This document shows, one piece after another, positions 2,699-34,823 of a DNA stretch of 35,198 bases. The notes under the pieces are model-generated. The model was not told where the DNA came from. It made no database searches and was given only the letters and a program-made list of their open reading frames with translations. The stretch's first letter is position 1. Each line of letters starts with the position of its first letter. This DNA comes from Propionivibrio sp. (lineage in GTDB: Bacteria; Pseudomonadota; Gammaproteobacteria; Burkholderiales; Rhodocyclaceae), in assembly GCF_016790145.1 (NCBI RefSeq), contig NZ_JAEUOI010000020.1, forward strand, positions 1 to 35,198. Direction: 5' to 3'. The translations under genes were made by a program, and so were the position numbers.

Positions 2699-2756
2699 AT
2701 TCAAATGGGTGCTAACCGAACACGCAATTGCTCCAAACTCGCATAGGAAAAATGCC

Positions 2757-3980: not shown

Positions 3981-4459
3981 GATACCGCGCTCACCAAATC
4001 CTAGTAACATCGTTACGCTTGAGCCCAAAACCGGCGCAGAGGGGTTTGCTCTTGGCATGCAAGCCAATGAGGTTGTGCTCCAGTTTATGCAAGGGGTATC
4101 AAGACAAGAGCGGATCATGGCGAAGTGTTCTACCCCTTTGGCTGATGCCCAGCTTATCCCCTTGCCATCTTCACTAACCCTCCGAAGTAGGAGCTGCTGG
4201 AGTTGTGACTGATCTTAGTCAGGCGCGCAATGCGCTTGACGATCAGTTCGTCCTTCTGATTCAAGGTTAGCTTCGAGTGGTCAGGAACTAAATCCAGTAC
4301 ATAACTGAACAGCCATGAAAAAGGATACTTTTCTCACAAGAATGCTTCAGTGCTAAAAAATAAGCGTTATCAGGAGCTTGGCTTCAATATGATGGCTTTT
4401 GATGCGGGATAAAGCCATTTTTAAAATGGTTCTAGAGTTGTTTCCAGGCCTTTCAGTCC
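3981..4459. other. Gene-free, AT-richer stretch between nifS and the giant-gene operon
   Basis: I find no convincing gene here on either strand. Open stretches at about 3981-4212 (plus) and up to 4118 (minus) match nothing I recognise and run out of frame into nifS. From about 4240 the base composition is clearly richer in A/T than both neighbours. A small hairpin, GCCATTTTTAAAATGGT, lies near 4411-4428. It could be decayed mobile or gene DNA marking the boundary between the nif cluster and the next block. Confidence 0.5.
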
Positions 4460-4488
4460 TTGTGTTTTCCCGATCGCCTCTCTATATT
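4460..4488 (+). promoter_or_regulatory. Candidate sigma-70 promoter of the four-gene operon
   Basis: TTGTGT (4460-4465) and TATATT (4483-4488) are separated by 17 bp. The -10 matches five of six consensus bases and the -35 matches three. It lies 56 bp upstream of the ATG at 4545, which has its own AAGGAGAG site. No sigma-54 or NifA site is seen nearby, so the operon is probably not under nif control. Confidence 0.45.
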
Positions 4489-4544
4489 AAAAACCGTTGC
4501 GGTGTTCGTTACACTGCCAGCATCGTTCCCACAAGGAGAGCCCC

Positions 4545-7500
4545 ATGGCTGTCGACAATGCTTTTTTGCGGGTGCATGCCTGGTTCGATCAGGCGATCAA
4601 CGAAGCCCTGAAGGATGTGGCGGACGCGGACCAGAAGGCGGCGCTGAAGAAAATCCTGTGGAGCCTGACTGACCCGACCAATCCGGCCGTGGCTCCGCCG
4701 CCGGCCGACCCGGCGCAGTTCGCCAAGGCCAGCGTGTCGGGCAAGAGCCTGTCGGTTGGCGCCATCGTGGTCGGCGAAGTGATTGCCGGCATCGAGCCGC
4801 TCAAGAAGGCCATAGACGCCATCGACGACCTGGACCCGGAAGGAGCCAAGGAGGCCATCAAGACGCTGGTCAACCAGGTCAAGACCGCCGTCCAGAGTGC
4901 CGGCATGTACACCAGTTCCTTCGGACTGGGCAAGCTGCTACTGACCCTGTCCAGTGACATCAAGCCGCCCGATCCGCCGCAGCCCGCCAAACCCGTCGCC
5001 GAAAAACTGGCCGCCGCCCTGGGTGCGGCCGCACCTGATTCGATGAAGGCCTCGTCGGCCATGGGCGTGCAGACCGTCGTGCTCGGCGGCGTGCTCGACA
5101 AGGCCTTCGGCGGTGAGGAGGCAATCAAGAAGTGGGCTAGCTTCAGCGCCGCGACCATTGCCCAGACGCTGCCCCCGCCGCTCCCGCCGCCCGCCGTGAT
5201 TTCGGCCTTCCCCGGCCACGGCATCCAGATCAAGAATACGGATCTGGCCAAAGGCATCGTCGTCGGCCTCTCGGGCGAGATCAGCAAGGAAAAGATCGAC
5301 GGCACGCGCAAGATCGCCCTTTCCCTGAAGGCTGCTGGCGACGTGCAAATCCGCTGGGATGGTACCTCGCCGCCCGTCTCCGAGGCGGCCGGGGGAACGC
5401 CCCTGGGCATCACCCTTGATGTCGCCGTAAAAACCATCGGCAGCAACGGCGCGATCTCGCTTCCCGACCCCGCCAAGAACCCCACGGTGCGCTTGCAGAT
5501 CGACGAACTGGGCGGCGGCATCAGCCTGGCCAAGCCGGCCGGCGGCAGCGACCTGGCGCCTTCCGTCAATCTGCGCGCCAAGGGCGGCAAGATCATCGTC
5601 AAGATCGACGACGCCCTGCTGTCGCAGGTGATGGGCAAGGAGATTTCGGTCGAGTTCGATATCGAGGCGCTGGCCGACGCCGCTGGTGGCTTCCGCCTCA
5701 AGGACGGCACCGACCTGCGCGTCAATCTGCCGATCAAGAGCCTGCCGACCGGACCCTTCAAGCTGCAGACGATCACCTTTGGCATCGCGCCAAAAAATGG
5801 TTTCGCGATCATCGAAACCGAGCTGTCGCTTTCCGCCAGCCTGGATCTCGGCCCGTTCAAGGGATCGGTCGAACGCATCGGCGCCATCCTGTCCATCAAC
5901 GTCGCCGACGGCAAGCCGACGCTCAAGTTCAAGCCGCCCACTGGCCTCGGGCTTTCGCTCGATGTCGGCCCGGTCAAGGGCGGCGGATTCCTTTCCTTTG
6001 ACCCGGTAGCCGGCGAATACGCGGGCGCCCTCGAACTCAAGATCGCCTCGATCGGCATCAAGGCGCTCGGCCTGCTCAACACCAAGCGCCCGCCGGGCAA
6101 CAACTGGTCGCTGCTGCTGCTGATCTTCGGCAACTTCCCGCCCATCCAGCTTTCCTGGGGCTTCACGCTGACCGGCATCGGCGGCCTGATCGGCGTCCAG
6201 CACACCGCCGACACCAACGCCATGGCCCAGCAGCTCGGCTCCGGCGGGCTCGATGCGGTACTCTTCCCCAAGGATGTGGCGAGCAATGCGCCGCAGATAT
6301 TCCAGACGCTCAAGGGCCTGTTCCCGTTCAAGCCCGGCGGCTTCATCATCGGGCCGATGCTGGAAGTCGGCTGGGGCACGCCCAACCTGGTATTCATACG
6401 TGTCGGCGTGTTGATCGAAGCCAGCCAGATCGCCATTCTCGGCCAACTGATCATCCAGATTCCGCCGCTGGTCGACAAGCAACTGGCCATCCTGCGCCTG
6501 CAGATCGACTTTGTCGGCGTCATCATCTTCGACCCGTTCAAGATCGCCTTCGACGGCAAGCTGCGCGATTCCCGCGTCGCCTTCATCACCCTCACCGGCC
6601 AGTTCGCCTTCCGTGCCGCCTTTGGCGACAAGCCGACCTTCCTGATCTCCGCCGGCGGATTCCATCCGCGCTTCGTCGACATTCCGCCCGACATCCCGAT
6701 GCCTTTCGACCGCATCGGCGCGGGCTTCTCGATCGGCATCATCGGCGTCAGCGTCAAGGCCTATTTCGCGGTCACCGCCGCCACCGTGCAGGCCGGTTGC
6801 GAGGTCAAGGCCTGGGGCGACATCGGCGTCGCCAGCTTTGACGCCGGCTGGGGCTTCGATGCCATCTGCTACCTGCAGCCCAAGTTCTATTTCGAACTCG
6901 ACTTCCGCGCGTGGATCAATGCCATGGCCTTCGGCATCGAATTCGGCGTGCGCCTCGAAGGCCTGCTCAAGGGCCCGGGGCGCTGGCGTATCCGCGGCTT
7001 GGCCGAAGTGGATCTCGGCTTCTTCGGCAGTGTCTCGGTTGATTTCGACGAATCCTTCGGCGACGATATCGACACGCCGCTGGTCACCGAAAGCGCTTGG
7101 CTGCTGCTGCAAGCCGAAGCCAGCAAACTGGATAACTGGAGTGTCCAGTTGCCGGCAGGCGGCGAGAGTTTCGTCAGCCTGACCAAGCGTGCAGGCGATA
7201 AAGACCCGGTGGCTCACCCGATCGCTTCACTCACCTTCACGCAACGCAAGGTGCCGCTCACCACCAAACTCGACAAGGTCGGCGACGCCAAAATCACCGG
7301 ACCGAACACCCTGGATATCGCCGACGTGATCTTCCACGGCAGCGCAGCGGGAGCGGCCACCACGATCAAGAAGGAGAACTTTGCCGCCGCCCAGTTCTTC
7401 AACCTCTCACAGGACGACAAACTCGGCAAGCCCTCTTTCGAAGCCATGGCCGCTGGCCGTGACTTCGGCTTCGACACGTTTATCGACTGTCCGTATATCG

Positions 7501-7868
7501 ACTGCCCGGTCGAATGGGAAACCCGGGATCTCGATCCGAAACCGGGCAATCTCGGCCTGCTTGGAACCAGCTTGGTGTCCAGCCACCTTTTCGCAATGGC
7601 CGATGGTCAGGGGCACTGGATGGCGGATACCGGCGCCGTTGGCCGCAGCGGCCTGCGCGCGCTGGAGGCCATGCTCCCGGCAGACAGCGCGCCGCTCACT
7701 TTGCGCGATGCCATGCCGGCCGCCGTCACCGGCAAGACGGACCAGAAAGCCGCGGTCAATCAGCGCTTCGAAGGTTATTGGCAGGCCGAGCAGGCGCGCG
7801 CCAGCAGCGCCCCCAGTGTGCGATCCGCCGCCGAACGGCAGGCTGTCGAGTTGTTTGAACTAGGCTAG
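4545..7868 (+). CDS. DUF6603 domain-containing giant protein (1107 aa)
   Basis: The ATG at 4545 follows AAGGAGAG. The N-terminal 200 residues are helical and Ala/Lys-rich with no signal peptide. A proline linker (about 210-216, PPPLPPP) leads into a long beta-rich, Gly-rich part. From about residue 400 to 840 it shows features I recognise from DUF6603 proteins: PTGLGLSLDVGPVKGGGFLS (about 465-484), EVGWGTPNLVF (about 606), SAGGFHPRF (about 702) and GSVSVDFDESFGDD (about 827-840). DUF6603 has no known function. The strand-and-glycine pattern suggests a large beta-sheet structure, which is inference. The C-terminal 250 residues look like an extra globular region and include the odd repeat DCPYIDCP. 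The next gene follows after 11 bp. Confidence 0.85.
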   Translation: MAVDNAFLRVHAWFDQAINEALKDVADADQKAALKKILWSLTDPTNPAVAPPPADPAQFAKASVSGKSLSVGAIVVGEVIAGIEPLKKAIDAIDDLDPEGAKEAIKTLVNQVKTAVQSAGMYTSSFGLGKLLLTLSSDIKPPDPPQPAKPVAEKLAAALGAAAPDSMKASSAMGVQTVVLGGVLDKAFGGEEAIKKWASFSAATIAQTLPPPLPPPAVISAFPGHGIQIKNTDLAKGIVVGLSGEISKEKIDGTRKIALSLKAAGDVQIRWDGTSPPVSEAAGGTPLGITLDVAVKTIGSNGAISLPDPAKNPTVRLQIDELGGGISLAKPAGGSDLAPSVNLRAKGGKIIVKIDDALLSQVMGKEISVEFDIEALADAAGGFRLKDGTDLRVNLPIKSLPTGPFKLQTITFGIAPKNGFAIIETELSLSASLDLGPFKGSVERIGAILSINVADGKPTLKFKPPTGLGLSLDVGPVKGGGFLSFDPVAGEYAGALELKIASIGIKALGLLNTKRPPGNNWSLLLLIFGNFPPIQLSWGFTLTGIGGLIGVQHTADTNAMAQQLGSGGLDAVLFPKDVASNAPQIFQTLKGLFPFKPGGFIIGPMLEVGWGTPNLVFIRVGVLIEASQIAILGQLIIQIPPLVDKQLAILRLQIDFVGVIIFDPFKIAFDGKLRDSRVAFITLTGQFAFRAAFGDKPTFLISAGGFHPRFVDIPPDIPMPFDRIGAGFSIGIIGVSVKAYFAVTAATVQAGCEVKAWGDIGVASFDAGWGFDAICYLQPKFYFELDFRAWINAMAFGIEFGVRLEGLLKGPGRWRIRGLAEVDLGFFGSVSVDFDESFGDDIDTPLVTESAWLLLQAEASKLDNWSVQLPAGGESFVSLTKRAGDKDPVAHPIASLTFTQRKVPLTTKLDKVGDAKITGPNTLDIADVIFHGSAAGAATTIKKENFAAAQFFNLSQDDKLGKPSFEAMAAGRDFGFDTFIDCPYIDCPVEWETRDLDPKPGNLGLLGTSLVSSHLFAMADGQGHWMADTGAVGRSGLRALEAMLPADSAPLTLRDAMPAAVTGKTDQKAAVNQRFEGYWQAEQARASSAPSVRSAAERQAVELFELG

Positions 7869-7879
7869 GAGAAAACGCC

Positions 7880-10800
7880 ATGGCCAATCTCAGTTACGAT
7901 TTTCTCCCCTGGGCCCGGCGCGGCCTGGCCCGAGCCCACCAACACGCGCAGCTCGACCTGGCCGGCACCTCGGCCCTGCCGGCCGTGGATATCGGCCTGC
8001 ATCTCCTGGGCAAGGGCGACGGCGCCGACCAGATCGTGGATTCCGACCCCGTCAAGCTCAAGGTCAGCGGACCCGGCGACATCATCGGAATCGACCCGCG
8101 CATCGTCGTGCGTACCGAGCCGCGCTCGAACAATCACAACTTCGAGCCGAACTACCTGGCCGCCATCGAGTTCGATCCGCCGGATTTCCCCTGGATGTTC
8201 ACGCCGGCCAAGGCGGATGCCAACAACCGCCTGATGCCCTGGCTGGCGCTGGTCGTTTTCGATGCTTCCACGGTCGGCGAACCGCAGGTACGCCCCGGCC
8301 GCCTGCTGCCCTCCGTGATCCTGCCGCTCGGCACACCGCTGCCAGCGCTTAGCCAGGCGTGGATGTGGGCGCACGCGCAGGTGGTACGTGACAAACCCGA
8401 GGCGCAGAACCCGATCGACATGCTCAAGACGGCCCCGTCGCGCAATCTGTCGCGCATCGTCTGCCCGCAACGGCTGGCGGCCAACACGAGCTATTTCGCC
8501 TGCCTGGTTCCGGTTTTCAAGCCAGGCCGCGACAGCGGGCTGGGCCGCCCGCTGGCGGCCGATGCCCGGCTGGAGCCAGCCTGGGAAGGCGTTGCCGCAA
8601 GCTTCGATCTTGAATTGCCGGTCTATTATCACTGGCACTTCAGTACCGGTCCGGCCGGCGATTTTGAAACACTGGCGCGGCGGCTGAAAACCCCCAAGGA
8701 CTACGCGCTGGAGAACCCGGCGGTCGCCGCCAGCCTGGCCCACCTCGGCCGCCTGCCGACCGAAGTCGATGCCGACCATGTCCTGCAGCCGCACAGTGCC
8801 CGCGGTCAGGGCAAGGGTTTCCTGACCAGCAACTACCTCGCCCAGTACGAAGGCGCACTCATCTCGCTGACGATCGCCGACAACGACTCGCCCGACCCCG
8901 GCCAGGTCGCGGAAATTGCAAACGACCTCGCGACCATCCTCAACGCCGGCGACGAGCGGGCCACCATCATCGCGTCCGAGGACGCCGAGGTAGATCTGCC
9001 CGACGCGCAGCCCAGGTACGTCCCCGTCGTCGGACCGCCCATCTACGGCGCGTGGCACGCTGCCACGCACAAGGTGGTACCGACCCAGCGCGACCATTGG
9101 CTGAACGGCCTTAACTGCAGCGTTCCGCGGCGCATGGGCGCCAGCGTCGGCACGCGGGTGGTGCAAACCAATCAGGAAATCTTCATGCAGGCAGCCTGGA
9201 AGCAGGCCGGCGATATCATCAAGGCCGAGCGCCTGTTCAGCCTCGCCCACCTGTCGCGCAAATCGCTGGCACGGATGGTCACTCGGCTGCAGCACCTGCC
9301 CGAAGCACGGCGGCTGGCGATGCTCGCCCCGGCGGCATCGCGCATACGCATCAGTCAGGAACAGACGGTCTATGGCTATGCCCAGGCGACCAGCCTGCCG
9401 CAAGGCTTTCACGATGGCGCCATGCGCCGTTCGATGAGCCCCGCCCGCGCGCTGCTGCGCAAGAACGGCGGCGCGGCCGGCGTTCGCCAGCTTGAACACC
9501 TTTCCAACGGCTTCAGCAAGACCGAATCGGTCGCTGCCCTGGCCCAGCCAGCCCGCTTCCGCTTCGATGGGCTGAGCGGACTCAACGCGCTTGATGGCTT
9601 GCAACTGCCGGAGGCGCCCGATGCCCGCGTTAGTATTCCCGGCTTTGCCGACGGCTTGCGCGTTGCCGACGCCCGGGTGCTTCTCGCCAGCGGACGGGAA
9701 CTGCAAGCCCGGTTAAAGGGCTCCGGCTGGCGGACGTCCACGCTTGGCGAAAGGCTCAAGGCCGGGGTGCTGCTCGACAGCCATTACCAGCGTCTGGATG
9801 TACTCAGCGAACAGCTGGCAGTCAGCGGCGCCACCGCCGTGCCCAGCCGCAGCGAGATGGCGACGGCGCTGCTGGCCACCAAAGCCAGCCGTCCCGAGGG
9901 CGTACAGATCAACGTTCAGCCCGATGCCAACGGCGGGTTCGCTCTCGCTGCGCAGGGGCTCAGGGTCGACGCGCGCGGCGGGCAGCTACTGCCGCATTCT
10001 GCCGACCGCCTGCGCGGCAAAGCGATGGCTGGCGCAGTCGGTGCCGTCAATGTCACGGCTATCCGCCGTTACGGCAATGCGGCGCTGTTCAATTCCTTGC
10101 CGGTCAACACGCTGCCGGTCGGTGGCGCCCAGGAGAAGCCGGTGCACATCGTAGCCGAGGCCGGCGGAAATTTCACTGCGCCGGCGGCTGTCGGCCCGGC
10201 GATCGCCGGTCAGGGCAGCATCACCGTCGCCCCGCCCGTGAGCGACAAGGCGGTTCTCGACCGCTTCGGCAAAGCCTGGCTGGACAAGATCGAACGCGAC
10301 CAGACACCCGCGCCGCCCAAAGGCTTCAGCCTGGCGGTGGTGCCCTTCGACCACGTCAAGACGGCAGCCCAGGCAGTAGTCGCCATCGACCCGGCCGTGC
10401 TGGTAACCCGCCGCGTGGAAAGCATGCTCCAGCTCGGCAGCAACGATTTTGTCAGCAAGGGCGCGCCGGCCGGCTTCATCGGCCCGGTGCTGAAGAACCT
10501 GGAACGCTTCATCATCCCGCGCACTTACGACCGGGTGATGGCCTACCCCAAGCTTGACGAGCCGCTCTACCGGCGTCTGGTGGATATGGACAAGTCGGCC
10601 TTCATGCCCGGCGTCGAGGAGATTCCCAACGACACCATCCTGCTCGTCAAGACCAACCCGAAGTTCATCGAGAGCTTCCTCGTCGGCAGCAACCACGAAA
10701 TGGGGCGTGAGTTGCTGTGGCGCGGTTTTCCGACCGATTGCCGGGGAACCCCGTTCCAGAAGTTCTGGGCCTATTTCGACCGTAACCGGATCGATATCGA

Positions 10801-11503
10801 TCCTATCCACCAGTGGAACCGCTCTGCCCGCCTCGGGCTGGCTGGCGGCCACGGCGGCACGGCGCGATTGGCGCTGCTCATCCGCGGCCAGTTGCTGCGC
10901 CGTTACCCGAACACCAATGTCTACGCGGTGAAGAAGCTGGCCAATCCACGCAGCTTCGACAAGGACCTGGCCGCCGCAATGGCCGAACCCGCCACCAATA
11001 CCGTCGTTCATCCGGACGGTGGCGGCGTCATCGGCGACGACATCGTCTTTTTCCTCTTCCCGCTCGCCGACACCGAAGCCAAGAATTACTGGTGGGTGCT
11101 TGAGGAACCCATGACCGAACCGCGTTTCGGCTTCGACGATGAAGAGCAGCAGCGCGAAGTGCCGCGCATGCGCAGGCGTGGCGGTCTCCTGCAGAAGCCG
11201 ATGGAAGTTGGCAGGGGCGCGCCGGTGGGGTCCACTTTCCTGGCGCGGGTCAACGCGCAACGGCTACTGAACGGCGAGCAAGCTCTTCCAGCCACCCCTG
11301 CAGGCAACACCTGGCTCGATGTGGATTGGTCCGAGGTCGGCACGCCGGTAGGCGGCTCCGTCACCCTGGCCCAGTTGGCCCAGGTTGACCTGATCGACAA
11401 CACCCTGCAGGTCAGTTCGGCGACCAGCCATGCCGGGCAGATCGCCCGCGCCCTGCTGCAGCGGCCGTTCCGGGGCTACTTCGATGGCGAGCGACTGTCA
11501 TGA
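7880..11503 (+). CDS. Giant uncharacterised protein, second gene of the DUF6603 operon (1207 aa)
   Basis: The ATG at 7880 follows AGGAG at 7867-7871, immediately after the stop of the DUF6603 gene. There is no signal peptide or membrane segment. Three blocks look conserved. The first is NYLAAIEFDPPDFPWMF with RLMPWLALVVF (about 91-127). The second is NHEMGRELLWRGFPTD (938-953), followed by a Trp/Phe-rich stretch. The third is LLIRGQLLRRYPNTNVYA (999-1016). I have seen closely similar strings in large unnamed proteins of actinobacteria and myxobacteria but know no function. The middle third (about 480-800) is Ala/Gly/Arg-rich and less distinctive. No enzyme motif is evident. The position suggests it works with the DUF6603 protein, perhaps as a structural partner, which is inference. 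Confidence 0.8.
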   Translation: MANLSYDFLPWARRGLARAHQHAQLDLAGTSALPAVDIGLHLLGKGDGADQIVDSDPVKLKVSGPGDIIGIDPRIVVRTEPRSNNHNFEPNYLAAIEFDPPDFPWMFTPAKADANNRLMPWLALVVFDASTVGEPQVRPGRLLPSVILPLGTPLPALSQAWMWAHAQVVRDKPEAQNPIDMLKTAPSRNLSRIVCPQRLAANTSYFACLVPVFKPGRDSGLGRPLAADARLEPAWEGVAASFDLELPVYYHWHFSTGPAGDFETLARRLKTPKDYALENPAVAASLAHLGRLPTEVDADHVLQPHSARGQGKGFLTSNYLAQYEGALISLTIADNDSPDPGQVAEIANDLATILNAGDERATIIASEDAEVDLPDAQPRYVPVVGPPIYGAWHAATHKVVPTQRDHWLNGLNCSVPRRMGASVGTRVVQTNQEIFMQAAWKQAGDIIKAERLFSLAHLSRKSLARMVTRLQHLPEARRLAMLAPAASRIRISQEQTVYGYAQATSLPQGFHDGAMRRSMSPARALLRKNGGAAGVRQLEHLSNGFSKTESVAALAQPARFRFDGLSGLNALDGLQLPEAPDARVSIPGFADGLRVADARVLLASGRELQARLKGSGWRTSTLGERLKAGVLLDSHYQRLDVLSEQLAVSGATAVPSRSEMATALLATKASRPEGVQINVQPDANGGFALAAQGLRVDARGGQLLPHSADRLRGKAMAGAVGAVNVTAIRRYGNAALFNSLPVNTLPVGGAQEKPVHIVAEAGGNFTAPAAVGPAIAGQGSITVAPPVSDKAVLDRFGKAWLDKIERDQTPAPPKGFSLAVVPFDHVKTAAQAVVAIDPAVLVTRRVESMLQLGSNDFVSKGAPAGFIGPVLKNLERFIIPRTYDRVMAYPKLDEPLYRRLVDMDKSAFMPGVEEIPNDTILLVKTNPKFIESFLVGSNHEMGRELLWRGFPTDCRGTPFQKFWAYFDRNRIDIDPIHQWNRSARLGLAGGHGGTARLALLIRGQLLRRYPNTNVYAVKKLANPRSFDKDLAAAMAEPATNTVVHPDGGGVIGDDIVFFLFPLADTEAKNYWWVLEEPMTEPRFGFDDEEQQREVPRMRRRGGLLQKPMEVGRGAPVGSTFLARVNAQRLLNGEQALPATPAGNTWLDVDWSEVGTPVGGSVTLAQLAQVDLIDNTLQVSSATSHAGQIARALLQRPFRGYFDGERLS

Positions 11504-11556
11504 ACTCCTGCTGAGCCACTGCCCCTTCCTGAAATCCCAACGCACAGAGGCCGACC

Positions 11557-14500
11557 ATGCCGCGTCCCGAATCATTCCAGGCTATCCAGTCCCTGCGCGC
11601 CGAGCGTCAGGCGATCGATGCTCAACTGGCGCAGGCCACCTATGCCGCTGACCAGGCCAAGCGCCGCCGCGATGCGCTGAACGCCGCCGGCGCTGGCGCA
11701 CAAGCGCTGGCCGAAGCCCAGCAGTCAATGGATCAGGCGGTGCAGCGCTACCACGGCCTGCGCGCCGACCGTTCCGGGTTGCTGGCGGCGCTGGCCGAGC
11801 AGTCCGCCGCAACGGCTGCTGACCAGGCCAAGGCGATCGAACTCTTCAACAGCCTGGAAGGCGACTTGCCGATCAGCCTGTTCCCGGTGCGCCTGGAAAC
11901 CCGCTATGACACCAATCCGCTTGTCCTGCAGATTCGCGTCTATCCCGATGCCTGCAACGTCCAGCGTCACGCCGCCGGACTGACGGAGAGCGAGCAGGCC
12001 GCGGGTCGCGCCTACTGGCAGGCCGGCTGGGATGCCCGGCCGCCGCGTATCGAGGACGAAGCCGACCCGGCCTTCGAAAGCGACGAGCAGTTCCGCATGC
12101 GCCAGCAGCGCCCCGAAGCCCTGTGGGCCGAGCTGGTGCGTGCCCTGCGCGCGCCGCGCGCGGCTTACGTGGTGCGCTCCCTGCGCCCGGACAATGCCAG
12201 TCTACTCGAACGGCCCGGCGTTCCCGCCGATCCGCCCGCCTTCCCGGAAGGCGTGGAACTGGCGTCACGCCTCTCGTCGCAGCCGGTGGCCGTCATGCTT
12301 CCCGACCGTTTCTGCGCCATCGGCTATGCCCGTGGCGGACAGACGGTGTTCCGCAAATTCGGCAGCGTGGTGCCCGACGTGCTGCCCATGTCGCCGGTCA
12401 TCGGCCCCGGCGATCCGCCGCCGCCGGAGGACGCCGAACCGCCCTTTGCCGGCGAGGCTGCCTGGCTCGCCGACTATGCCAAGGCCGAAAAGCAGGGCAT
12501 GGCGATCACCATCCGTGGCGCCGACGTGCTGGTCAATGGTTACAACTTGAACGAGGGTGTCGAAAGGCTGCTGGTCATCGGCATCGACTGGACGCTGAGC
12601 CCGCAGGACGCCGCCGCCGGCATTGGGGCCCTCTTTGAAACACACACGACTTCCGGCGGCATGGCTTTCCTGCCTGTCGGCACGCCGACCAACAACGTGG
12701 CGGCCGAAAGCTCCGGGCATTCCCCGGCCTTCGACCGCGACGGCCAGCGCTCGGCCGCGCCGGCCACCGCCCCGGCGCCCGGCACGCGGGCCATCGAGGC
12801 CCTGCGCACGGCCTTCGGCATTGCCCCCGCCGATCTATCCGGCGAGACCCTGGCCAACGCCCATCTCGACGAGCCTGCCCTGGCCGGTCACATGGCCAAC
12901 GCACTGTACCTCGGCCTGGCCGGCGACTATCTGGACAAGTACTGGAGTCCGGCGCAGGGGGAGCAAGCGGGCGATGACGCCCTCGACGACCTGCGCCAGC
13001 ACGTCGTGCGCTTCGTGCGCCCGGCCGGGCCGCTGCAACCCGTGCGCATCGACCGCCAGCCCTACGCCATCCTGCCCGTACTGGCCGCTGGCAGCTATCA
13101 GTCCGCGTCGGCGTTTGAAAACGGCCTGGCCGGCATTCTCAACCTGCTGCGCCCGAGCTGGACGGAAGCCATCGGCGGCGTCAAGCGCTTTGACGGCTCG
13201 CCGGCCACCACCAACCTTCTCCTGCGCCAAGGACCGTGGGCGCAAACAGCCAGCTATCGTGAAGTCAGCCCCGCGCAGGACTCCGACGTAATAAAGGCCG
13301 TTGGCAAGTTCCAGTCCGATCTGCGCGCCAGTGCCGGCAGCGTCTTTCTCAAGGCGCTGGCGATTCTGCACGGTGAGTCATCAGCCACCGTCGCCAAACT
13401 GAACGCGCTGGCCATCCACACCCTCGCCGTAAAGCCGGACACCAATACCCTGCCGCGCGCCATGGCCTGGGTTCAAGCCGATGCGGAAATCAAGAGCCGT
13501 GAAGCGGCGGCGGACTCGTTTCTGCCCAAGGACGCCAACTACATCGAGCAACTGGCTGCCGCCGTCAAACCCGGAAACAATATCAAGGACGGAAAGGCCG
13601 AACTGCGCAAGGCGCCTTCGCTGCTGGCTGGCCTGCTGGCCTATTCCGTCGACCTCGAAGCCGACCGCGCCAGCGTCGGGCTGGTCAATGCGGTGGTTCC
13701 GGGCCAGGACCCCAAACAGCCCAGGCGCTCCTTCCGTGCGCCGCTCAGCATTGGTATCGAGAACCCGGTCGAGGACGAACAATCCTTCACCCTGACCCAC
13801 GCCGGCGAGCTGAGCCGCGTTCGCCTGCCCGGCATTACCGGCAAGGAAAGCGTCACCACCTTTGCGCTCGGCCAGGCGGCACGGGCCGCGGCCAGCCCGG
13901 ATGTGGCGCTGCCCCAGTGGCACGAGGTCGGCAAGGCGAAACTCCATGAACAGTGGCGTTACCGCACGACTCGCCACGCGCGCGACCTGGCCACTGTAGT
14001 GACCAGCCTTGGCAAGCTCGCCAACCGTAGCGTCGGCGAACTCAACTGGTCCTTGCGCACCACGCTCGACCTGTTCGACTGGCGGCTCGACGCTTGGTAC
14101 ACCTCGCTGGCCACGCGCCGGCTGGCGGAACTGCGCACTACCACCGACGAGAACGGCGAACCCGCCATTCGCACCGGCCTGCACGTCGGTGCCTGGGGCT
14201 ATGTCGAAGGTTTGAAGCCTGATCACGCCGGCCACAGCGAAAGCGCCGGCCACATGCTGATGCCGTCGATGCGCCATGCCGCCGCGGCCGCCATTCTGCG
14301 TAGCGCCTTCCAGTCCAACGACGCGGCGGCCAAGGCCGCCTTCGATCTCGACCTCTCCTCGCAACGGGTGCGCGCCGGCAAGGCGATTTTCGAAGGACTG
14401 GCCCAAGGCCAGACGCTGGCCGCGCTGCTCGGCTACCGCTTCGAGCGCGGTCTGCATGACGCCCTGCTTGGCCAGTACATCCTCGATTTCCGCGTGGTAT

Positions 14501-16593
14501 TCCCGCTGCGCCCGGTCAATGTGGACGCCCAGGGCAAAGCCAGCGACCAGCCGAAGGAAGTCGTCGCCGCGCGCGACGTGGTCGATGGCGTCAAGCTGCT
14601 TGAACAGTCACCAGAACAGATATCGCTGCAAGTTCCGAAGCTGGCCCTTCTCGGCGCTGATCATGAGCATCGGAAGAAGATCACCTCTTTGCTCACCGAC
14701 ATCGACCGGCTATGGGACGCCGTGGCCGATCTGTCCGTCGCCGAAGCCGTCTACCAGATCGCCCAGGGCAACGTCGAACGCGCCGCGGCCGCACTCTCGG
14801 TGCTCGACAAGCAGACCACCCCGGTCGAGCCGCAGATGCCGAACAGCCCGCGCGACGGTCTGACCTACACCCAGCGCGTGGTGCTCATGCTCAATGACGC
14901 TGCGCCGCCCGCCGGCTGGACGGAAGACGCCGTTGCGCTGGCCGAACCGCGGGTGAACGCCTGGCTGGCTCAGTTGATCGGCGACCCCCGGAATTTCACG
15001 CTGCGCGCCCGTATCTTCCAGGGCGACGTGCTGGAAAACGATCCGCTGGAAGTCACCCCGGCCGATCTGGGTCTCTCGCCGCTGGCGCTGCTCATGGCAC
15101 TGGAGTCGCCTGGGGCCGGGCGCACCGATGTACGTACCGGCGCGGCCGACAAGCTCACGCCTCCGGATCCGAGCAAACCGGTGGTCGCTGAAATGAGCCG
15201 CTTGCGCCTGCGCCTCGCCGAGGTATTCAGCACCATGGCCAGGCAACGGGTTGGTGACAGTGCTTTTGTGCACATCGAAGAAACGCCGGCCAGCGGCAAA
15301 GGCAATGGTCTGCTGCACCTGGAATGCCTTCTGGCTCTGGCCCGTCGGCTGGTCACCCAGTCCCGGCCGGCGTTGCGCAGCGACCTGGCGGTCATCGAAC
15401 CCAAGTTCGACCGGCAGAATATCGAGGGCGACTACCCTGGCGCCGATGCCGCCGATCTCGACACCCGCGCCATCGCCGCCGCAAGCGCCTTCGGCAAGCT
15501 GGCACAGGCTTTTCTAGACCTGCTCCCCGCCGACGACGTCACCCCGCTCGACGTCGATGCGACTGAGGCCGCCCTCGCCACCTTGCGCCCCTTCGCCGTT
15601 CTCGGTGCCGAAAGCGAAGATCACCGCACCTTTGCCGATGCAGCAGCTGCCATGGCCGCACTGCGCCGCCGCGCCAGTGCCGCGCGTGGCGACATGGCGG
15701 CCCGTGGCCAAGCCCTGCAGGCCCAGCGCAACGCAGCATCGGCGCCTGGAGCGAAGCCGGCCACCGTCGTCCAGTCCGCCATCGACACCCTGAAAACGGT
15801 CTTCGGCCGTGACTTCCCGGTCGTTCCGACGTTCTCCCTCGGCGACCGCGCCGCGTCGGTGCAGAGCTGCCTCGCAAATCAGAAGACGCTCACCGCCGGA
15901 CGCCCATCGGTCGTTGCCGGCTGGCTGCCCAAGATGGCCAAGGTGCGCGGCGGTGCCGAAAGACTTCAATCGCTCCTGCTGGCCCGCGAGATGCTCGCCG
16001 GCACGTACGCCGACGACTGCTTTGCTGTGGTTCAGTCGCCAGCCAACAGCGAAGCCGTCTGGGCAGCGCTGCCCGAAGCCTGGCCGGACGCCCCGCTCGG
16101 CGATGTGGCGAAGACCGACATCCTGGCCGGCAGTCGCCGCCGTCCTGATCTGGCCGTGGCCCTGCACGCACCGGCGCCGCTGCCTGAGACGATCAAGGAT
16201 GACACTGCCCTCGCCGGGCTGGTTTGCGACGACTGGGCGGAAACCGTGCCCACGCACACCAGCACCGCCGCCGTCGCTTTCCATTACGACGCCCCCAACG
16301 CAAGGCCGCCGCAGGCTATTCTGCTGGCCATTCCGCCACGTCCGCAAATGGCCCACTGGACGTTTGCCGAGGTCCTGGCCACGGTGGAGGAAAGCATTGC
16401 GCTGGCCAAATTGCGCGCAGTGACCCCCAACCAGCTGGCGGGCCCGGTCAGCCTGGCGCTGCCGCTGAATATCATTCCCGACGTCAAGTCAGCGCTGGTG
16501 CCTGGACTAAGCATTTCGGCCATGTCCAAATCTGCTTATGCCGTGGCCAGCATCGGCAGCAACAGCAAGAAGATGGCCATCGGACAGGTTTAG
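11557..16593 (+). CDS. Giant uncharacterised protein, third gene of the operon (1678 aa)
   Basis: This is the largest gene in the window. The first 100 residues form a probable coiled coil: Ala/Gln/Arg-rich, without Pro and almost without aromatics. Then comes LFPVRLETRY (108-117) with RVYPD (127-131), a pair that recurs in my memory in unnamed giant proteins of actinobacteria and myxobacteria. RQPYAILPV lies at about 500-508. Other segments are long and mixed alpha/beta. No signal peptide, TM segment or catalytic motif is seen. The ATG at 11557 has only a weak GAGG upstream. The gap to the previous gene is 53 bp. Its N-terminal coiled coil suggests assembly into a complex, which is inference. 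Confidence 0.8.
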   Translation: MPRPESFQAIQSLRAERQAIDAQLAQATYAADQAKRRRDALNAAGAGAQALAEAQQSMDQAVQRYHGLRADRSGLLAALAEQSAATAADQAKAIELFNSLEGDLPISLFPVRLETRYDTNPLVLQIRVYPDACNVQRHAAGLTESEQAAGRAYWQAGWDARPPRIEDEADPAFESDEQFRMRQQRPEALWAELVRALRAPRAAYVVRSLRPDNASLLERPGVPADPPAFPEGVELASRLSSQPVAVMLPDRFCAIGYARGGQTVFRKFGSVVPDVLPMSPVIGPGDPPPPEDAEPPFAGEAAWLADYAKAEKQGMAITIRGADVLVNGYNLNEGVERLLVIGIDWTLSPQDAAAGIGALFETHTTSGGMAFLPVGTPTNNVAAESSGHSPAFDRDGQRSAAPATAPAPGTRAIEALRTAFGIAPADLSGETLANAHLDEPALAGHMANALYLGLAGDYLDKYWSPAQGEQAGDDALDDLRQHVVRFVRPAGPLQPVRIDRQPYAILPVLAAGSYQSASAFENGLAGILNLLRPSWTEAIGGVKRFDGSPATTNLLLRQGPWAQTASYREVSPAQDSDVIKAVGKFQSDLRASAGSVFLKALAILHGESSATVAKLNALAIHTLAVKPDTNTLPRAMAWVQADAEIKSREAAADSFLPKDANYIEQLAAAVKPGNNIKDGKAELRKAPSLLAGLLAYSVDLEADRASVGLVNAVVPGQDPKQPRRSFRAPLSIGIENPVEDEQSFTLTHAGELSRVRLPGITGKESVTTFALGQAARAAASPDVALPQWHEVGKAKLHEQWRYRTTRHARDLATVVTSLGKLANRSVGELNWSLRTTLDLFDWRLDAWYTSLATRRLAELRTTTDENGEPAIRTGLHVGAWGYVEGLKPDHAGHSESAGHMLMPSMRHAAAAAILRSAFQSNDAAAKAAFDLDLSSQRVRAGKAIFEGLAQGQTLAALLGYRFERGLHDALLGQYILDFRVVFPLRPVNVDAQGKASDQPKEVVAARDVVDGVKLLEQSPEQISLQVPKLALLGADHEHRKKITSLLTDIDRLWDAVADLSVAEAVYQIAQGNVERAAAALSVLDKQTTPVEPQMPNSPRDGLTYTQRVVLMLNDAAPPAGWTEDAVALAEPRVNAWLAQLIGDPRNFTLRARIFQGDVLENDPLEVTPADLGLSPLALLMALESPGAGRTDVRTGAADKLTPPDPSKPVVAEMSRLRLRLAEVFSTMARQRVGDSAFVHIEETPASGKGNGLLHLECLLALARRLVTQSRPALRSDLAVIEPKFDRQNIEGDYPGADAADLDTRAIAAASAFGKLAQAFLDLLPADDVTPLDVDATEAALATLRPFAVLGAESEDHRTFADAAAAMAALRRRASAARGDMAARGQALQAQRNAASAPGAKPATVVQSAIDTLKTVFGRDFPVVPTFSLGDRAASVQSCLANQKTLTAGRPSVVAGWLPKMAKVRGGAERLQSLLLAREMLAGTYADDCFAVVQSPANSEAVWAALPEAWPDAPLGDVAKTDILAGSRRRPDLAVALHAPAPLPETIKDDTALAGLVCDDWAETVPTHTSTAAVAFHYDAPNARPPQAILLAIPPRPQMAHWTFAEVLATVEESIALAKLRAVTPNQLAGPVSLALPLNIIPDVKSALVPGLSISAMSKSAYAVASIGSNSKKMAIGQV

Positions 16594-16627
16594 TCGTCAA
16601 TCAAGGAGAAATGCTTGAAGAACCTTC

Positions 16628-16715
16628 ACCACCAAGTCGCCAAGTTCACCAAGGTGCACCAAGTTAACTTCAAGTTTTTCTTGGTGATTCTTTGTGAACT
16701 TGGTGACTTGGTGGT
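16628..16715. repeat. Large imperfect inverted repeat inside the operon (ACCAAG-rich)
   Basis: Arm 16628-16663, beginning ACCACCAAGTCGCCAAGTTC, pairs with arm 16680-16715, ending GAACTTGGTGACTTGGTGGT. About 31 of 36 positions match, across a 16-nt loop. It is followed by a T-rich stretch (CGCTTTTTCTC, about 16718-16727). Each arm is itself made of short ACCAAG-type repeats. It fills most of the 169-bp gap between the third and fourth giant genes and could act as an attenuator or partial terminator. Confidence 0.75.
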
Positions 16716-16762
16716 TCGCTTTTTCTCATTGATCGCCAGCCAGGAAAGCTGAGGAGCCCACC

Positions 16763-18718
16763 ATGCTGCAACTCAAGAAACAGTTTGCCGAAAGGGTCGC
16801 GATCGCTGACCTTCTTGGATATGTCCAGTTTGAAATGCCTACGTACTTCCGGCTGGAGGTCGACCCGATCGGTGAAACCTACGACGAAGGCCTGTCCGCC
16901 AGGATTGCCGACCCGCTTTGGATGCTCGCCCGCCAGTGGCAGTTTGGCGAGTTCGACGGCGAAGATGCAGGTTGGCCGGTGCAGGCCAGTTATTCCATTG
17001 GCGGCACGCCGGTCATCGGCTATGGCCCAGGGCTCAAGCCCGATGCGGCCGCCTTTCGCCCTTTCGCCGCCGGCGACGCGCCGCTGGAAGCGATGGTCGA
17101 GGCGGAACCGCTGCTGGCCGAAGGTTTCCATCCGCGCGCCAACGCGGAGGCCGGGCAGATGCTGGTGCGCCTGGCCAGCGGCGCGGGCCGTGGCGACATT
17201 GCCGATGCGGCCCGGGCAGCCTATCCCGGCTACAAGGACAAGGAAACAATGCCGGACGACCCGCTGAGCGATCCGGCAGGCGCCCTCTGGCACCTGCTTC
17301 TCGCCGACCGCTGCATCGACGCCCAAGCCCTGGCCACGGATCTGCGCAAGAACACCGATGCGAATGGCGCCCTGCTCGCCCTGCCGCCAGCGCTCACCGA
17401 TCGGGGGCTGGCCATGGATGCCGCGCCGGTGCTGGCCAACTGGCTGGCCTGGATGGCTGATTACATCTTCGAGCCCGAAACCAAGTCCGCCTGGCTGCCC
17501 CGCCGGCAGGAATACGCTTTCGAAGTAGCCGTCGGCGCCAATGGACAAAGCCAGATCCTGGACTCGGATGAATACATCGACGGCCACATCGACTGGCACG
17601 ATTTCGACCTCAAGGTCGGCCTGCCGGAAGGCGCGCTGCCCAACTCCGCTGGCGAGGCGCTGGACGATATCAAGCCGCGCCAATCCGTTCCGGCCCAGAT
17701 CCAGTATGCCGGCATGCCCGCCAGCCGCTTCTGGGAATTCGAGGACGGCCAGGTCAATTTTGCCCGCCTGCAGGCCGGCCCGCTCGATCTGGTACGCATG
17801 ATGGTTGCGGAATATGCGCTGGTGCATGGCAACGACTGGTTCCTTGTGCCGGCTCGGGTCAAGGCCGGCGGTCTGTACCGGGTAATGGACTTCGCCGTGA
17901 CCGATACCTTCGGTCGGCAAACCATCGTCAATCCGATCACGGCCGATCGTGGTCTGAACTGGCGGCTGCAGGGGCTGACGTCGCCCAATGGCCCGGCAGA
18001 TGCCCAGTGGCTGTTCGTCCCGCCGCCGCTTTCCGACACGCTGGAAGGCGATCCGCTGGAAGAGGTGGTTCTGGTGCGCGACGAAATGGCCAATCTGGCC
18101 TGGGCCATCGAAAAGCGCGTGCAGGGCGTCAGCGGTGAACCGCTTGACCGTGCCCTGGAAGACCAGCGCTACAGCATCCGCCAGCAACCCACCGTGACTG
18201 GCACCGACGCCACGCAGTTCTACCGCCTGATGACGCCAGTTCCGAGCCACTGGCTGCCACTGATCCCGGTGCGCAAATCGGCGGCCGATCTCTCGGTATC
18301 GCTGTTGCTACAACGCGCCGGAATGGAACGCTTCTATCGCGTCGACGATGCGGCCATGGCGGCCATCGACGGCTATGCAGAATTCATCGAACGCCTGCGT
18401 GAGTCGCCGGACTTCGTCGAGGTCGTTCCCTTCGACCCGGAACTACCGGTCGACGAACAGGATGTACAGGTCTTCATCTTCCATCCGCGTGGTCGACTGC
18501 TCAGGGCATCGCCCCAGGGTAGCATCAGCCTGGATTCTTTGCTCATCGAAGAAGCCGAAGTGCCGCGCGCCGGTGCCGTTGTCGAGCGCCGCTTCAACTA
18601 TGCACGCACGGCGGATGGCCGGGCCTGGTTATGGGTCGGCAGGAAAAAACGCGTGGGTCGCGGTGAAGCCTCAAGTGGCTTGCGCTTCGACTGTGCAGTG
18701 CAGTCAGAGCAGTACTAA
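16763..18718 (+). CDS. Uncharacterised protein, fourth gene of the DUF6603 operon (651 aa)
   Basis: The ATG at 16763 follows GAGGAG at about 16751. The N-terminus carries FRLEVDP (29-35) and PLWMLARQWQFGEFDG (51-66), a Trp-rich signature I have met in unnamed proteins of other phyla. No signal peptide, TM segment or enzyme motif is seen. The fold appears mixed alpha/beta, and there are many Trp residues (several in the first 200 positions). The last 120 residues are acidic and then basic. It lies on the same strand as the three preceding giant genes, separated from them by the inverted repeat at 16628-16715. I cannot assign a function. Membership of the same system is inferred from direction, size and shared novelty. 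Confidence 0.8.
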   Translation: MLQLKKQFAERVAIADLLGYVQFEMPTYFRLEVDPIGETYDEGLSARIADPLWMLARQWQFGEFDGEDAGWPVQASYSIGGTPVIGYGPGLKPDAAAFRPFAAGDAPLEAMVEAEPLLAEGFHPRANAEAGQMLVRLASGAGRGDIADAARAAYPGYKDKETMPDDPLSDPAGALWHLLLADRCIDAQALATDLRKNTDANGALLALPPALTDRGLAMDAAPVLANWLAWMADYIFEPETKSAWLPRRQEYAFEVAVGANGQSQILDSDEYIDGHIDWHDFDLKVGLPEGALPNSAGEALDDIKPRQSVPAQIQYAGMPASRFWEFEDGQVNFARLQAGPLDLVRMMVAEYALVHGNDWFLVPARVKAGGLYRVMDFAVTDTFGRQTIVNPITADRGLNWRLQGLTSPNGPADAQWLFVPPPLSDTLEGDPLEEVVLVRDEMANLAWAIEKRVQGVSGEPLDRALEDQRYSIRQQPTVTGTDATQFYRLMTPVPSHWLPLIPVRKSAADLSVSLLLQRAGMERFYRVDDAAMAAIDGYAEFIERLRESPDFVEVVPFDPELPVDEQDVQVFIFHPRGRLLRASPQGSISLDSLLIEEAEVPRAGAVVERRFNYARTADGRAWLWVGRKKRVGRGEASSGLRFDCAVQSEQY

Positions 18719-21589: not shown

Positions 21590-21961
21590 ATGAAAATACA
21601 TAAATTCCTGCTTGCCCTGCTCGTAGCCGGCGCAAGCTATCAAGCCCTCGCCGCCGACCCGGCCATGGTGTCAAATGGCGTGCTCACCGGCAGCAACGGC
21701 ATGTCCCTGTATATCTTCGACAAGGATGCCGCCGGCAGCGGCAAAAGCGTCTGCAATGACGGGTGTGCTGCCAACTGGCCGCCGCTGCTGGCGATGAGTG
21801 GCGATACCGCGAGCGGCGATTACTCTATCATCACGCGCGATGACGGAAAAAAACAATGGGCCTTCAGGGGCAAGCCACTCTACTACTGGGCCAAGGACCA
21901 GAAGCCGGGCGACAAGACGGGTGATGGTTTCAATAACGTCTGGCGCCTCGCCAAGCCCTAA
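21590..21961 (+). CDS. Secreted COG4315-type repeat protein (PF03640-like)
   Basis: This 123-residue protein has a signal peptide (MKIHKFLLALLVAGASYQAL, cleaved after ALA near residue 22). Two related units follow: GVLTGSNGMSLYIFDKD with CNDGCAANWPPL, and FRGKPLYYWAKDQKPGDKTG. The LYxFxxD and CxxxCxxxWPP patterns are those of the secreted repeat family of unknown function that is common next to ECF sigma genes. Two Cys may form a disulfide or bind a metal. GGAG at about 21580 supports the start. It lies 8 bp upstream of the sigma gene, so it is probably the target protein of that regulon. A role in periplasmic redox or oxidant stress is often guessed but unproven. Confidence 0.85.
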   Translation: MKIHKFLLALLVAGASYQALAADPAMVSNGVLTGSNGMSLYIFDKDAAGSGKSVCNDGCAANWPPLLAMSGDTASGDYSIITRDDGKKQWAFRGKPLYYWAKDQKPGDKTGDGFNNVWRLAKP

Positions 21962-21969
21962 GTCGCCGC

Positions 21970-28683: not shown

Positions 28684-28823
28684 GGGAACATTATCGCAGT
28701 TTGCATGCTCTAAGCCGACGTTGCCTTCCAGTTAATCCTGGCCGCTTCAAGTGTCAGTCAGTGTTTGCGAGGCGCCGGCTTGTTGTATTTGCGCCTATAT
28801 ACTGATTGTGTTCCGACCCCTTC

Positions 28824-34686: not shown

Positions 34687-34771
34687 GGAGGGATACCCAA
34701 GCGGTCAACGGGATCAGACTGTAAATCTGACGGCTCTGCCTTCGAAGGTTCGAATCCTTCTCCCTCCACCA
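34687..34771 (+). tRNA. tRNA-Tyr (anticodon GTA)
   Basis: The acceptor stem GGAGGGA (34687-34693) pairs with TCCCTCC (34761-34767), and ACCA is encoded. The anticodon GTA lies at 34721-34723 within ACTGTAAAT. The long variable arm of a class II tRNA is present, and GGTTCGAATCC is the T-arm. Confidence 0.96.
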
Positions 34772-34823
34772 AAAATGCCGCTGAATGTGGTTTTGACTGG
34801 TTGTGCTGCGGGTAAATGGATGC

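What the first reader, a model, noticed from the sequence alone, without database searches (positions are those of the whole stretch)
4545..18718. Four-gene operon of giant uncharacterised proteins around a DUF6603 protein
Four same-strand genes (1107, 1207, 1678 and 651 aa) fill 14 kb with almost no gaps. Seen: no signal peptides, phage sheath or baseplate, nuclease, ATPase or transposase motifs; a coiled-coil start in the third; signature blocks in genes 2-4. Known: DUF6603 is a family of unknown function found in many bacteria. Inferred: the four products act together, perhaps as a large cytoplasmic or externally exported assembly. The recurring blocks (NHEMGRELLWRGFPTD, LFPVRLETRY, PLWMLARQWQFGEFDG) suggest an old and widespread system that lacks a description.
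Basis: partly seen in the sequence, partly recalled or inferred. Interest (0 to 1): 0.72.

Follow-up and report, generated by a model that had tools for sequence, protein, structure and literature searches.

The report
Giant scaffold operon with swappable enzymes
Four giant proteins of unknown kind are encoded side by side in the same order across many bacterial phyla and in salt-loving archaea, often next to a fifth gene for a protein- or phosphate-cutting enzyme that is swapped between lineages, which looks like an undescribed modular molecular machine.

Summary
The four genes are real: 1107, 1207, 1678 and 651 aa at 4545-18718. Gene 1 is DUF6603 (E 4e-108); genes 2-4 have no match over cut-off in Pfam, NCBIfam, PHROGs, PADLOC or by sequence in the PDB. 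In 79 loci from 12 named phyla, one of them archaeal, gene 1 adjoins gene 2 in 72/73 testable loci and gene 3 follows in 72/72; all four are present in 58/59.

In 52 of 66 loci another same-strand gene ends at DUF6603; 37 are recognisable enzymes that differ by lineage (PhoD phosphatase, NAL1-type trypsin, subtilase, M64, PLD, kelch oxidase). On the gene-2 tree these labels need 17 changes. Two unrelated protease types share a C-terminal domain. 27 of 79 gene 2 proteins have transmembrane segments, mostly a hairpin with basic flanks. The window's own clade shows neither a recognised slot enzyme nor the hairpin.

Best reading: a four-protein chassis holding an exchangeable hydrolase, probably for biological conflict. 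Function is inferred. eCIS dependence, phage origin and NTPase-type conflict systems were tested and not supported.

The parts
4545..7868 (+). gene 1, DUF6603 protein, 1107 aa; predicted long run of antiparallel beta strands (about residues 219-838), amphipathic on average
   Evidence: AlphaFold2 model pLDDT 76, pTM 0.49; strand amphipathicity
7880..11503 (+). gene 2, 1207 aa; conserved N-terminal module about 1-530 and C-terminal module about 884-1200 (block NHEMGREL), variable middle where 27 of 79 gene 2 proteins examined carry transmembrane segments (absent here)
11557..16593 (+). gene 3, 1678 aa; coiled-coil-like start, LFPVRLETRY block, segment 951-1056 that resembles gene 4 residues 123-234
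16763..18718 (+). gene 4, 651 aa; confident model (pLDDT 83, pTM 0.81) with no match in PDB at E<=0.001
10691..10738 (+). block NHEMGRELLWRGFPTD of gene 2
   Evidence: conserved
11878..11907 (+). block LFPVRLETRY of gene 3
   Evidence: conserved
16913..16960 (+). block PLWMLARQWQFGEFDG of gene 4
   Evidence: conserved
3981..4544 (+). place where many relatives have the fifth gene ending; here no such gene was seen, the next gene upstream is a class V aminotransferase (2709-3980)

Best explanation
Genes 1-4 encode the conserved chassis of a large multi-protein assembly that holds one exchangeable hydrolase, in many lineages encoded by a fifth gene directly before DUF6603. SHOWN by sequence: conserved order of the four genes across phyla and in archaea; an enzyme slot filled by unrelated enzyme families, most with catalytic motifs; a common C-terminal domain joined to two unrelated protease types; transmembrane segments, mostly a hairpin, in 27 of 79 gene 2 proteins. 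INFERRED: the four proteins form one complex; the enzyme docks on it (by the shared tail in the trypsin and subtilase types); the hairpin tethers the complex to the cytoplasmic face of the producing cell's membrane in that branch; the enzyme is held off until a trigger and then cuts its target, as in effector-swapping conflict systems. The window's copy belongs to a clade without a recognised fifth gene, so there the enzyme is either encoded elsewhere or dispensed with.
For: Order: g1 by g2 72/73, g3 after g2 72/72, g4 after g3 63/65, all four present 58/59. In the three adjacency misses (L027, L080, L089) the ORFs do adjoin and only the profile ends fall short; in L061, the one without all four, gene 3 runs off the held DNA. 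Gene 3-4 fusion in L041, splits in L011. Swapping: of 66 loci with >=2.5 kb before gene 1: PhoD 15, NAL1-type 11 (five of them near-identical Nitrosomonas), subtilase 5, M64 3, PLD 2, kelch 1, four two-member families 8, unclassified abutting ORF 7, none or other 14 (Pfam basis, class models). 17 label changes on the gene-2 tree, 'none' counted as a state, with starred sister pairs of different payload such as M64/subtilase and subtilase/unknown family. Shared tail of 3 of 5 subtilases and the NAL1 types, E down to 1.6e-13. The tail occurs in 2 of 72,556 plasmids, both with DUF6603 within a few kb, and in 4 of 293 genomes of one order, the 3 strong ones all among the 18 cassette genomes (hypergeometric p 2e-4, or 3e-3 without the genome used as centre). 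Catalytic motifs. Hairpin-type gene 2: protease-type loci 14/19, PhoD loci 1/16, window clade 0/12. In a Nocardia plasmid a subtilase gene overlaps the end of gene 4 instead.
Against: No experiment. The window clade (8 rows, one starred clade) has no recognised slot enzyme; I gave all 8 the label 'none', though in two of them (L014, L022) an unclassified ORF, perhaps a shadow frame, ends near gene 1. 14 of 66 loci have none or other, and 15 more have abutting genes of unknown kind. Payload labels are clustered on the tree more than shuffled ones (26 changes v 37.2 with all groups, 0 of 200 as low), so much is inherited; for subtilase, M64 and NAL1 types no clustering was seen. PhoD relatives also occur on plasmids without the cassette. 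Two of five subtilases lack the simple catalytic patterns, and the strict histidine pattern was found in only 1 of 7 NAL1 types. The tail gene of G399 lies on another contig than its cassette. A lone gene 4 exists on one plasmid. Binding-type add-on domains in some lineages point outside the cell. Seven N-termini (3 of 49 gene 1, 4 of 47 slot proteins) pass a loose apolar threshold. No NTPase or sensor was recognised in the conserved part.
Confidence: 0.55

Rival explanations
1. A released toxin complex: chassis and enzyme leave the cell by lysis and act on other cells; gene 2's hairpin or gene 1's beta sheet inserts into the target membrane and the enzyme is delivered, in the manner of (not as a member of) the ABC toxin complexes.
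For: Signal peptides not seen in the window proteins and rare candidates elsewhere by a hydropathy scan. Binding modules fused to the cassette: PA14 and a sub-cut-off F5/8C match in a Caulobacter gene 4, lamin-tail domain in a haloarchaeal gene 4, FG-GAP in a Streptomyces gene 2, PG_binding_1 on a Streptomyces PhoD enzyme. The PhoD, M64, subtilase, PLD and oxidase classes are usually exported enzymes (recalled). An RHS-repeat gene lies beside one cassette.
Against: The hairpin is very hydrophobic, mostly uncharged at the turn and usually flanked by basic residues, as for an anchor in the producer's own membrane. Apart from slot genes, the most widespread flanking cluster (10 loci, not identified) has no fixed place, so no partner such as an immunity gene stands out; the flanks were not all annotated. 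No sequence or fold link to a toxin complex.
Confidence: 0.25
2. A lipid- or apolar-ligand-handling particle: DUF6603 forms an ApoB- or LptD-like amphipathic beta belt that carries apolar cargo, processed by the variable hydrolase.
For: The 6 Foldseek hits of the DUF6603 model at E<=0.001 are ApoB100 (2), LptD (2), an usher complex and an S-layer-associated barrel complex. Strands alternate apolar/polar more than shuffles, 3.01 v 1.47, 0 of 200 shuffles.
Against: TM-scores of those hits are 0.28 or less and the model's pTM is 0.49. Any beta sandwich shows alternation. The slot holds proteases (19 of 66) about as often as phosphatase or PLD types (17 of 66).
Confidence: 0.1
3. An accessory of extracellular contractile injection systems (eCIS).
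For: CIS_tube PF19266 in 16 of 34 cassette genomes (34 of the 79 loci were given) against 15 of 299 of the phylum sample, the window's own among them. Within the genus 2 of 3 genomes with gene 4 against 0 of 25 others (p 0.008). The window's genome has a sheath and tube gene on contig C5. In G403 the tube gene lies about 33 kb from gene 2.
Against: In a matched order 5 of 18 genomes with gene 2 against 40 of 275 others, p 0.17. 18 of 34 cassette genomes had no CIS_tube match. None of the other 8 DUF6603 genomes of the phylum sample is among its 15 CIS_tube genomes. No eCIS family in genes 1-4 or the window neighbours scanned.
Confidence: 0.03
4. A phage or prophage structural module.
For: One record named Bacteriophage sp. 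(MT835531, UNVERIFIED, faecal scaffold) carries the cassette.
Against: No confirmed relative in 2.9 million viral contigs (19 pattern matches, none confirmed), no PHROG, no viral fold match at E<=0.001 for gene 4. One of 50,697 phage records.
Confidence: 0.02

Closest known systems
Pfam PF20248 (DUF6603)
   Same: Gene 1 scores 362.5 bits over a cut-off of 27.
   Different: The family is only a name; its conserved partners (genes 2-4) and the enzyme slot are not part of the Pfam model. A search of the open-access library found no paper naming it.
MoxR-vWA/VMAP ternary and related NTP-dependent conflict systems (Kaur et al. 2020, PMC7159879; passages read)
   Same: Conserved multi-gene core with effector domains that keep displacing one another, and small effector-associated domains shared between components.
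   Different: No AAA+, STAND or GTPase match in genes 1-4; the core proteins here are giants with no profile match to those cores. Whether those systems occur in haloarchaea was not checked.
Nuclease-protease pairs acquired by unrelated antiviral systems (PMC12799240; abstract and passages read)
   Same: Trypsin-like proteases exchanged as modules between systems.
   Different: There the protease is fused to known defence enzymes and activates an MBL-type nuclease; here genes 1-4 hit no PADLOC model.
ABC (Tc) toxin complexes and polymorphic toxins (recalled; PMC3482391 seen in a search listing only)
   Same: Giant proteins without signal peptides plus a variable enzymatic part.
   Different: No Tc/RHS family match in genes 1-4; the enzyme is usually a separate gene at the start of the operon rather than a C-terminal swap.
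Extracellular contractile injection systems
   Same: Found in the same genomes more often than in an unmatched sample.
   Different: No sheath, tube or baseplate match in genes 1-4; the matched comparison is not significant.

Membership tests
DUF6603 (PF20248) | profile score above the gathering cut-off | tested here: met
   gene 1, 362.5 bits against 27
NTP-dependent conflict systems (VMAP and kin) | AAA+/STAND/GTPase core protein | tested here: not met
   no such Pfam match in genes 1-4; one rearranged relative, L104, has a P-loop-like protein by eye beside it
NTP-dependent conflict systems (VMAP and kin) | exchangeable effector enzymes | tested here: met
   17 payload changes on the gene-2 tree; not in the window's own clade
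Known anti-phage defence systems | match to a PADLOC model | tested here: not met
   0 matches for genes 1-4 at E<=1
Extracellular contractile injection system | sheath/tube/baseplate genes in the cluster | tested here: not met
   genes 1-4; window neighbours by Pfam (20 ORFs)
ABC toxin complex | homology to TcA/TcB/TcC or RHS proteins | tested here: not met
   no Pfam/NCBIfam match over cut-off in genes 2-4 and only DUF6603 in gene 1, no PDB sequence match to a toxin complex
ABC toxin complex | killing or translocation activity | not testable with these tools
   needs bench assay
Phage structural module | relatives in phage genomes | tested here: not met
   0 confirmed in viral contigs, 1 unverified record of 50,697
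Outer-membrane beta-barrel (for gene 1) | signal peptide and closed barrel | tested here: inconclusive
   no signal peptide by hydropathy; barrel-like Foldseek hits with low TM-scores

The most novel reading that the evidence does not exclude
A previously undescribed class of prokaryotic multi-protein machine shared by bacteria and haloarchaea: four giant proteins of new families form a carrier that is loaded with one interchangeable hydrolase (protease, phosphatase, phospholipase-type or oxidase) and works either tethered to the membrane or decorated with surface-binding modules, so that its target range evolves by swapping the loaded enzyme.
Probability: 0.45. Interest if true: 0.85.

Novelty: categorically new. 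Interest (0 to 1): 0.72.

Why it matters
Four protein families totalling about 4,600 residues travel together across 12 named phyla, one of them archaeal, with no family match for three of them, no solved relative by sequence, and no paper naming DUF6603 in the library searched. The swappable enzyme slot gives a handle: the enzymes have recognisable chemistry, so the system's role becomes testable by asking what the loaded hydrolase cuts and when. It also turns an anonymous Pfam family into the marker of a defined system, and gives annotators a four- to five-gene signature.

Tried and rejected
Rejected: phage origin; eCIS dependence. Undecided: a defence-island signal (63 flanking ORFs scanned with PADLOC gave scattered restriction-modification and Mads-type matches, at most 3 members per model among the 25 shown of 188 models; no control set, so no conclusion). 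Homology between genes 4 and 2, 2 and 3, 1 and 2: nothing; genes 3 and 4 share a segment (E 4e-5, probability 70%, not followed); genes 1 against 3 and 4 were not compared.

Led nowhere: PDB profile searches for genes 2-4, with the gene 1 hits being helical bundles on its N-terminal helices; promoter scan at chance level and terminators below it; paper searches for payload and related terms. Pfam on 20 ORFs of the window's neighbourhood found ordinary genes or nothing.

Rows dropped and limits: the genome scan kept the best 80 of 326 confirmed relatives, 79 distinct, so counts lean to near relatives. The tree used 56 gene-2 sequences, quick method, no bootstraps, and warned of uneven composition. 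A7 used 47 of the 57 upstream ORFs listed; one search used 34 of 79 loci; one search used 63 of the 85 flanking ORFs listed. The 79 gene 2 proteins are those of at least 850 aa and 500 bits among 84 loci (they include four plasmid or phage records), with one apolar window of at least 2.4 as the test; the two-segment pattern was read out for 18. Gene calls outside annotated records are plain longest ORFs; some in GC-rich loci look like shadow frames (L014 and L022 downstream ORFs). NAL1 membership rests on similarity clusters and my own profile; Pfam itself flagged Trypsin in 3, Trypsin_2 in 2 and Nal1_C in 2 of 47. Circularity: the class profiles were built from members they then re-found.
Full report
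WHAT IS THERE. Gene 1 is DUF6603 (PF20248, E 4.4e-108); genes 2-4 match nothing over a cut-off in Pfam or NCBIfam and nothing at E<=1 in PHROGs or PADLOC. The genome is a 4.05 Mb draft of 239 contigs, and the window is numbered as contig C117. A congener, G022, has a contig of 56,319 bases whose M64 and gene 2 ORFs have the lengths and, for M64, the score of those in NZ_FLQY01000290 of Candidatus Propionivibrio aalborgensis, also 56,319 bases, so the window's genus is probably Propionivibrio (inference). The cassette is 65.6% GC against 58% on both sides. Gene 4 was found in 3 of 59 genomes searched, the window's own among them, and the nearest gene 2 relatives are MAGs titled only as Gammaproteobacteria; horizontal acquisition is likely (inference).

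CONSERVED ORDER. Gene 4 alone finds 14 of 72,556 plasmid records, from Streptomyces, Nocardia, haloarchaea, Rhizobium, Paraburkholderia and Gemmatirosa. Gene 1 finds 14; 13 records are shared. The gene-4-only record, a Streptomyces anthocyanicus plasmid, shows a lone gene 4 relative near transposase genes; the gene-1-only record is a weak match (E 8e-6). A gene-2 profile scan of 84,980 species genomes gave 355 pattern matches, of which 326 were confirmed; the best 80 were kept, 79 distinct. In these, gene 1 lies within 400 bp before gene 2 in 72 of 73 testable loci, gene 3 follows in 72 of 72, gene 4 follows gene 3 in 63 of 65, and all four are present in 58 of 59 loci with ample flank. By ORF ends the three adjacency misses (L027, L080, L089) do adjoin, and in L061, the one without all four, gene 3 runs off the held DNA. 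Phyla by NCBI name: Pseudomonadota 32, Bacteroidota 12, Actinomycetota 8, Acidobacteriota 6, Chloroflexota 4, Cyanobacteriota 4, Methanobacteriota (haloarchaea) 3, Myxococcota 3, Nitrospirota 2, one each of Bacillota, Planctomycetota and Gemmatimonadota, and 2 unnamed. L041 fuses genes 3 and 4 in one 2168-aa ORF; Rhizobium (L011) splits genes 2 and 3. One congener has a second, rearranged copy: genes 3, 4, a 520-aa gene, then 1 and 2.

THE FIFTH SLOT. In 57 loci of the 84 examined a same-strand ORF of at least 150 aa ends shortly before the conserved part of gene 1, often overlapping its start. Pfam on 47 of these 57: PhoD in 14, DUF7800 in 11, subtilase in 5, M64 in 3, trypsin in 3, PLD in 2, kelch/galactose-oxidase in 1 (details). 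Clustering and class profiles give, for 66 of the 79 loci (those with gene 1 and at least 2.5 kb upstream): PhoD 15, NAL1-type 11 (five of them near-identical Nitrosomonas), subtilase 5, M64 3, PLD 2, kelch 1, four two-member families without a useful Pfam match 8, abutting but unclassified 7, none or other 14. On a 56-sequence gene-2 tree the labels need 17 changes, 'none' counted as a state. Well-supported sister pairs differ in payload: L046 M64 and L067 subtilase (99), L073 subtilase and L091 unknown family (100), L045 unknown family and L083 NAL1-type (99). The labels as a whole are still more clustered than shuffles (26 changes with all groups, shuffled mean 37.2, 0 of 200 as low), so payloads are both inherited and exchanged. 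Catalytic patterns: PhoD GDQ(I/V)YAD in 13 of 14 and GD(V/I)H in 14 of 14; the serine motif in 7 of 7 NAL1-type sequences but a strict histidine pattern in 1 of 7; HExxH in 3 of 3 M64; two HxK(x4)D motifs in each of 2 PLD; histidine and serine motifs in 3 of 5 subtilases.

A SHARED TAIL. Three of the five subtilases and the NAL1-type proteins share a C-terminal domain of about 115 residues, although the proteases are unrelated (alignment). It was found in 2 of 72,556 plasmid records, both with DUF6603 within a few kb. In 293 genomes of one actinobacterial order it was found in 4; the three strong matches are all in the 18 genomes with gene 2, in one of them on another contig (p 2e-4, or 3e-3 without the centre genome). 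I read it as a docking module (inference).

LOCALISATION. No signal peptide was seen in the four window proteins by hydropathy; across relatives 3 of 49 gene 1 and 4 of 47 slot proteins pass a loose N-terminal threshold. In 27 of 79 gene 2 proteins examined, the same place after the N-terminal module holds a strongly apolar segment. Of the 18 read out, most have a second one close by, basic residues before the first and little or no charge in the turn. A hairpin of this kind puts both modules on the cytosolic side by the positive-inside rule (inference). It is common with protease payloads (14 of 19), rare with PhoD (1 of 16) and absent from the window's clade (0 of 12); relatedness is not controlled for, and five of the protease loci are near-identical Nitrosomonas. 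Against a purely cytosolic role, other lineages add PA14, lamin-tail, FG-GAP or peptidoglycan-binding domains.

STRUCTURE. Gene 4 folds confidently (pLDDT 83, pTM 0.81) and has no PDB or viral match at E<=0.001. Gene 1 is a long series of antiparallel strands (pLDDT 76, pTM 0.49). Its strands alternate apolar and polar residues more than shuffles (3.01 v 1.47; 0 of 200), and its six Foldseek hits at E<=0.001 are ApoB100 and barrel proteins with low TM-scores. Gene 3 residues 951-1056 resemble gene 4 residues 123-234.

WHAT IT IS NOT. Not phage: no confirmed relative in viral contigs and one unverified record among phages. Not dependent on eCIS: an apparent link (16 of 34 v 15 of 299; within the genus 2 of 3 v 0 of 25) is not significant in a matched order (5 of 18 v 40 of 275, p 0.17). 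Not a known conflict system: no NTPase in the core and no PADLOC match.

WIDER FAMILY. Of 299 genomes drawn from the phylum, 9 have DUF6603 but only 3 match the gene 2 profile, two of them weakly. Of the 8 others, five carry a DUF6603 protein of more than 3,200 aa, in four of them followed by a roughly 700-aa protein with weak gene 2 similarity, and three a DUF6603 protein of about 1,510-1,560 aa, in L099 preceded by a metallo-beta-lactamase-like gene (match just under the Pfam cut-off). So the cassette is one branch of a larger DUF6603 world.

VERDICT. The window copy is a variant without a recognised enzyme in the slot. Function is inferred; nothing in print was found by searches for DUF6603 and PF20248 in the open-access library, which does not cover most subscription journals or bioRxiv.

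Noticed in passing
L012 (MT835531.1, 10100-40042): A record named Bacteriophage sp. from human faeces (UNVERIFIED) carries genes 1 (part)-4 in order; probably a bacterial scaffold misnamed as phage.
   Followed up: partly
L118:17047-18852 (Streptomyces anthocyanicus plasmid NZ_CP109276.1): A gene 4 relative standing alone, without DUF6603 on the record at the sensitivity used, with IS5 transposase genes a few kb upstream.
   Followed up: partly
L104:3-19924 (G022 contig C60): Second cassette in a congener in rearranged order (3, 4, 520-aa gene, 1, 2) after a protein with a P-loop-like GxxGxGKS stretch at its start (by eye, not profiled); the 520-aa protein has an H-G...C pattern that recalls caspase-like folds but no Pfam match.
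   Followed up: partly
L017:20382-22190: Alpha/beta-hydrolase-like N-terminus (by eye) plus caspase domain (PF00656) starting 21 bp after gene 4, in a locus with no upstream payload.
   Followed up: partly
L119:2433-6143 (Nocardia plasmid): Subtilase gene overlapping the end of gene 4 by 4 bp: payload at the other end of the operon.
   Followed up: partly
L092-L099: Other DUF6603 architectures: proteins of more than 3,200 aa followed by giants with weak or no relation to genes 2-4; in L094/L099 a 1,513-aa DUF6603 protein, in L099 preceded by a metallo-beta-lactamase-like gene.
   Followed up: partly
G000 contig C5 (L110, 7879 bp): The window's genome has contractile injection sheath and tube genes on a short contig.
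   Followed up: partly
L013:489-6677, L016, L019: Nearest relatives of the window cassette have divergent genes upstream; in L013 these are HlyD-type, M50+HlyD-like and GAF+HlyD proteins, with similar ORFs in L016 and L019. The window does not show them.
   Followed up: no
window 28806-32279: 1157-aa ORF with no Pfam match, not part of the cassette.
   Followed up: no
window 21590-23273: Lipoprotein_15 repeat gene, PhyR-type ECF sigma factor and a zinc-finger anti-sigma-like gene in a row.
   Followed up: no
window 34687-35006: tRNA-Tyr, tRNA-Gly, tRNA-Thr cluster at the contig end.
   Followed up: no
gene 3 residues 951-1056 and gene 4 residues 123-234: Profile comparison hints at a common helical segment (E 4e-5, probability 70%).
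   Followed up: no
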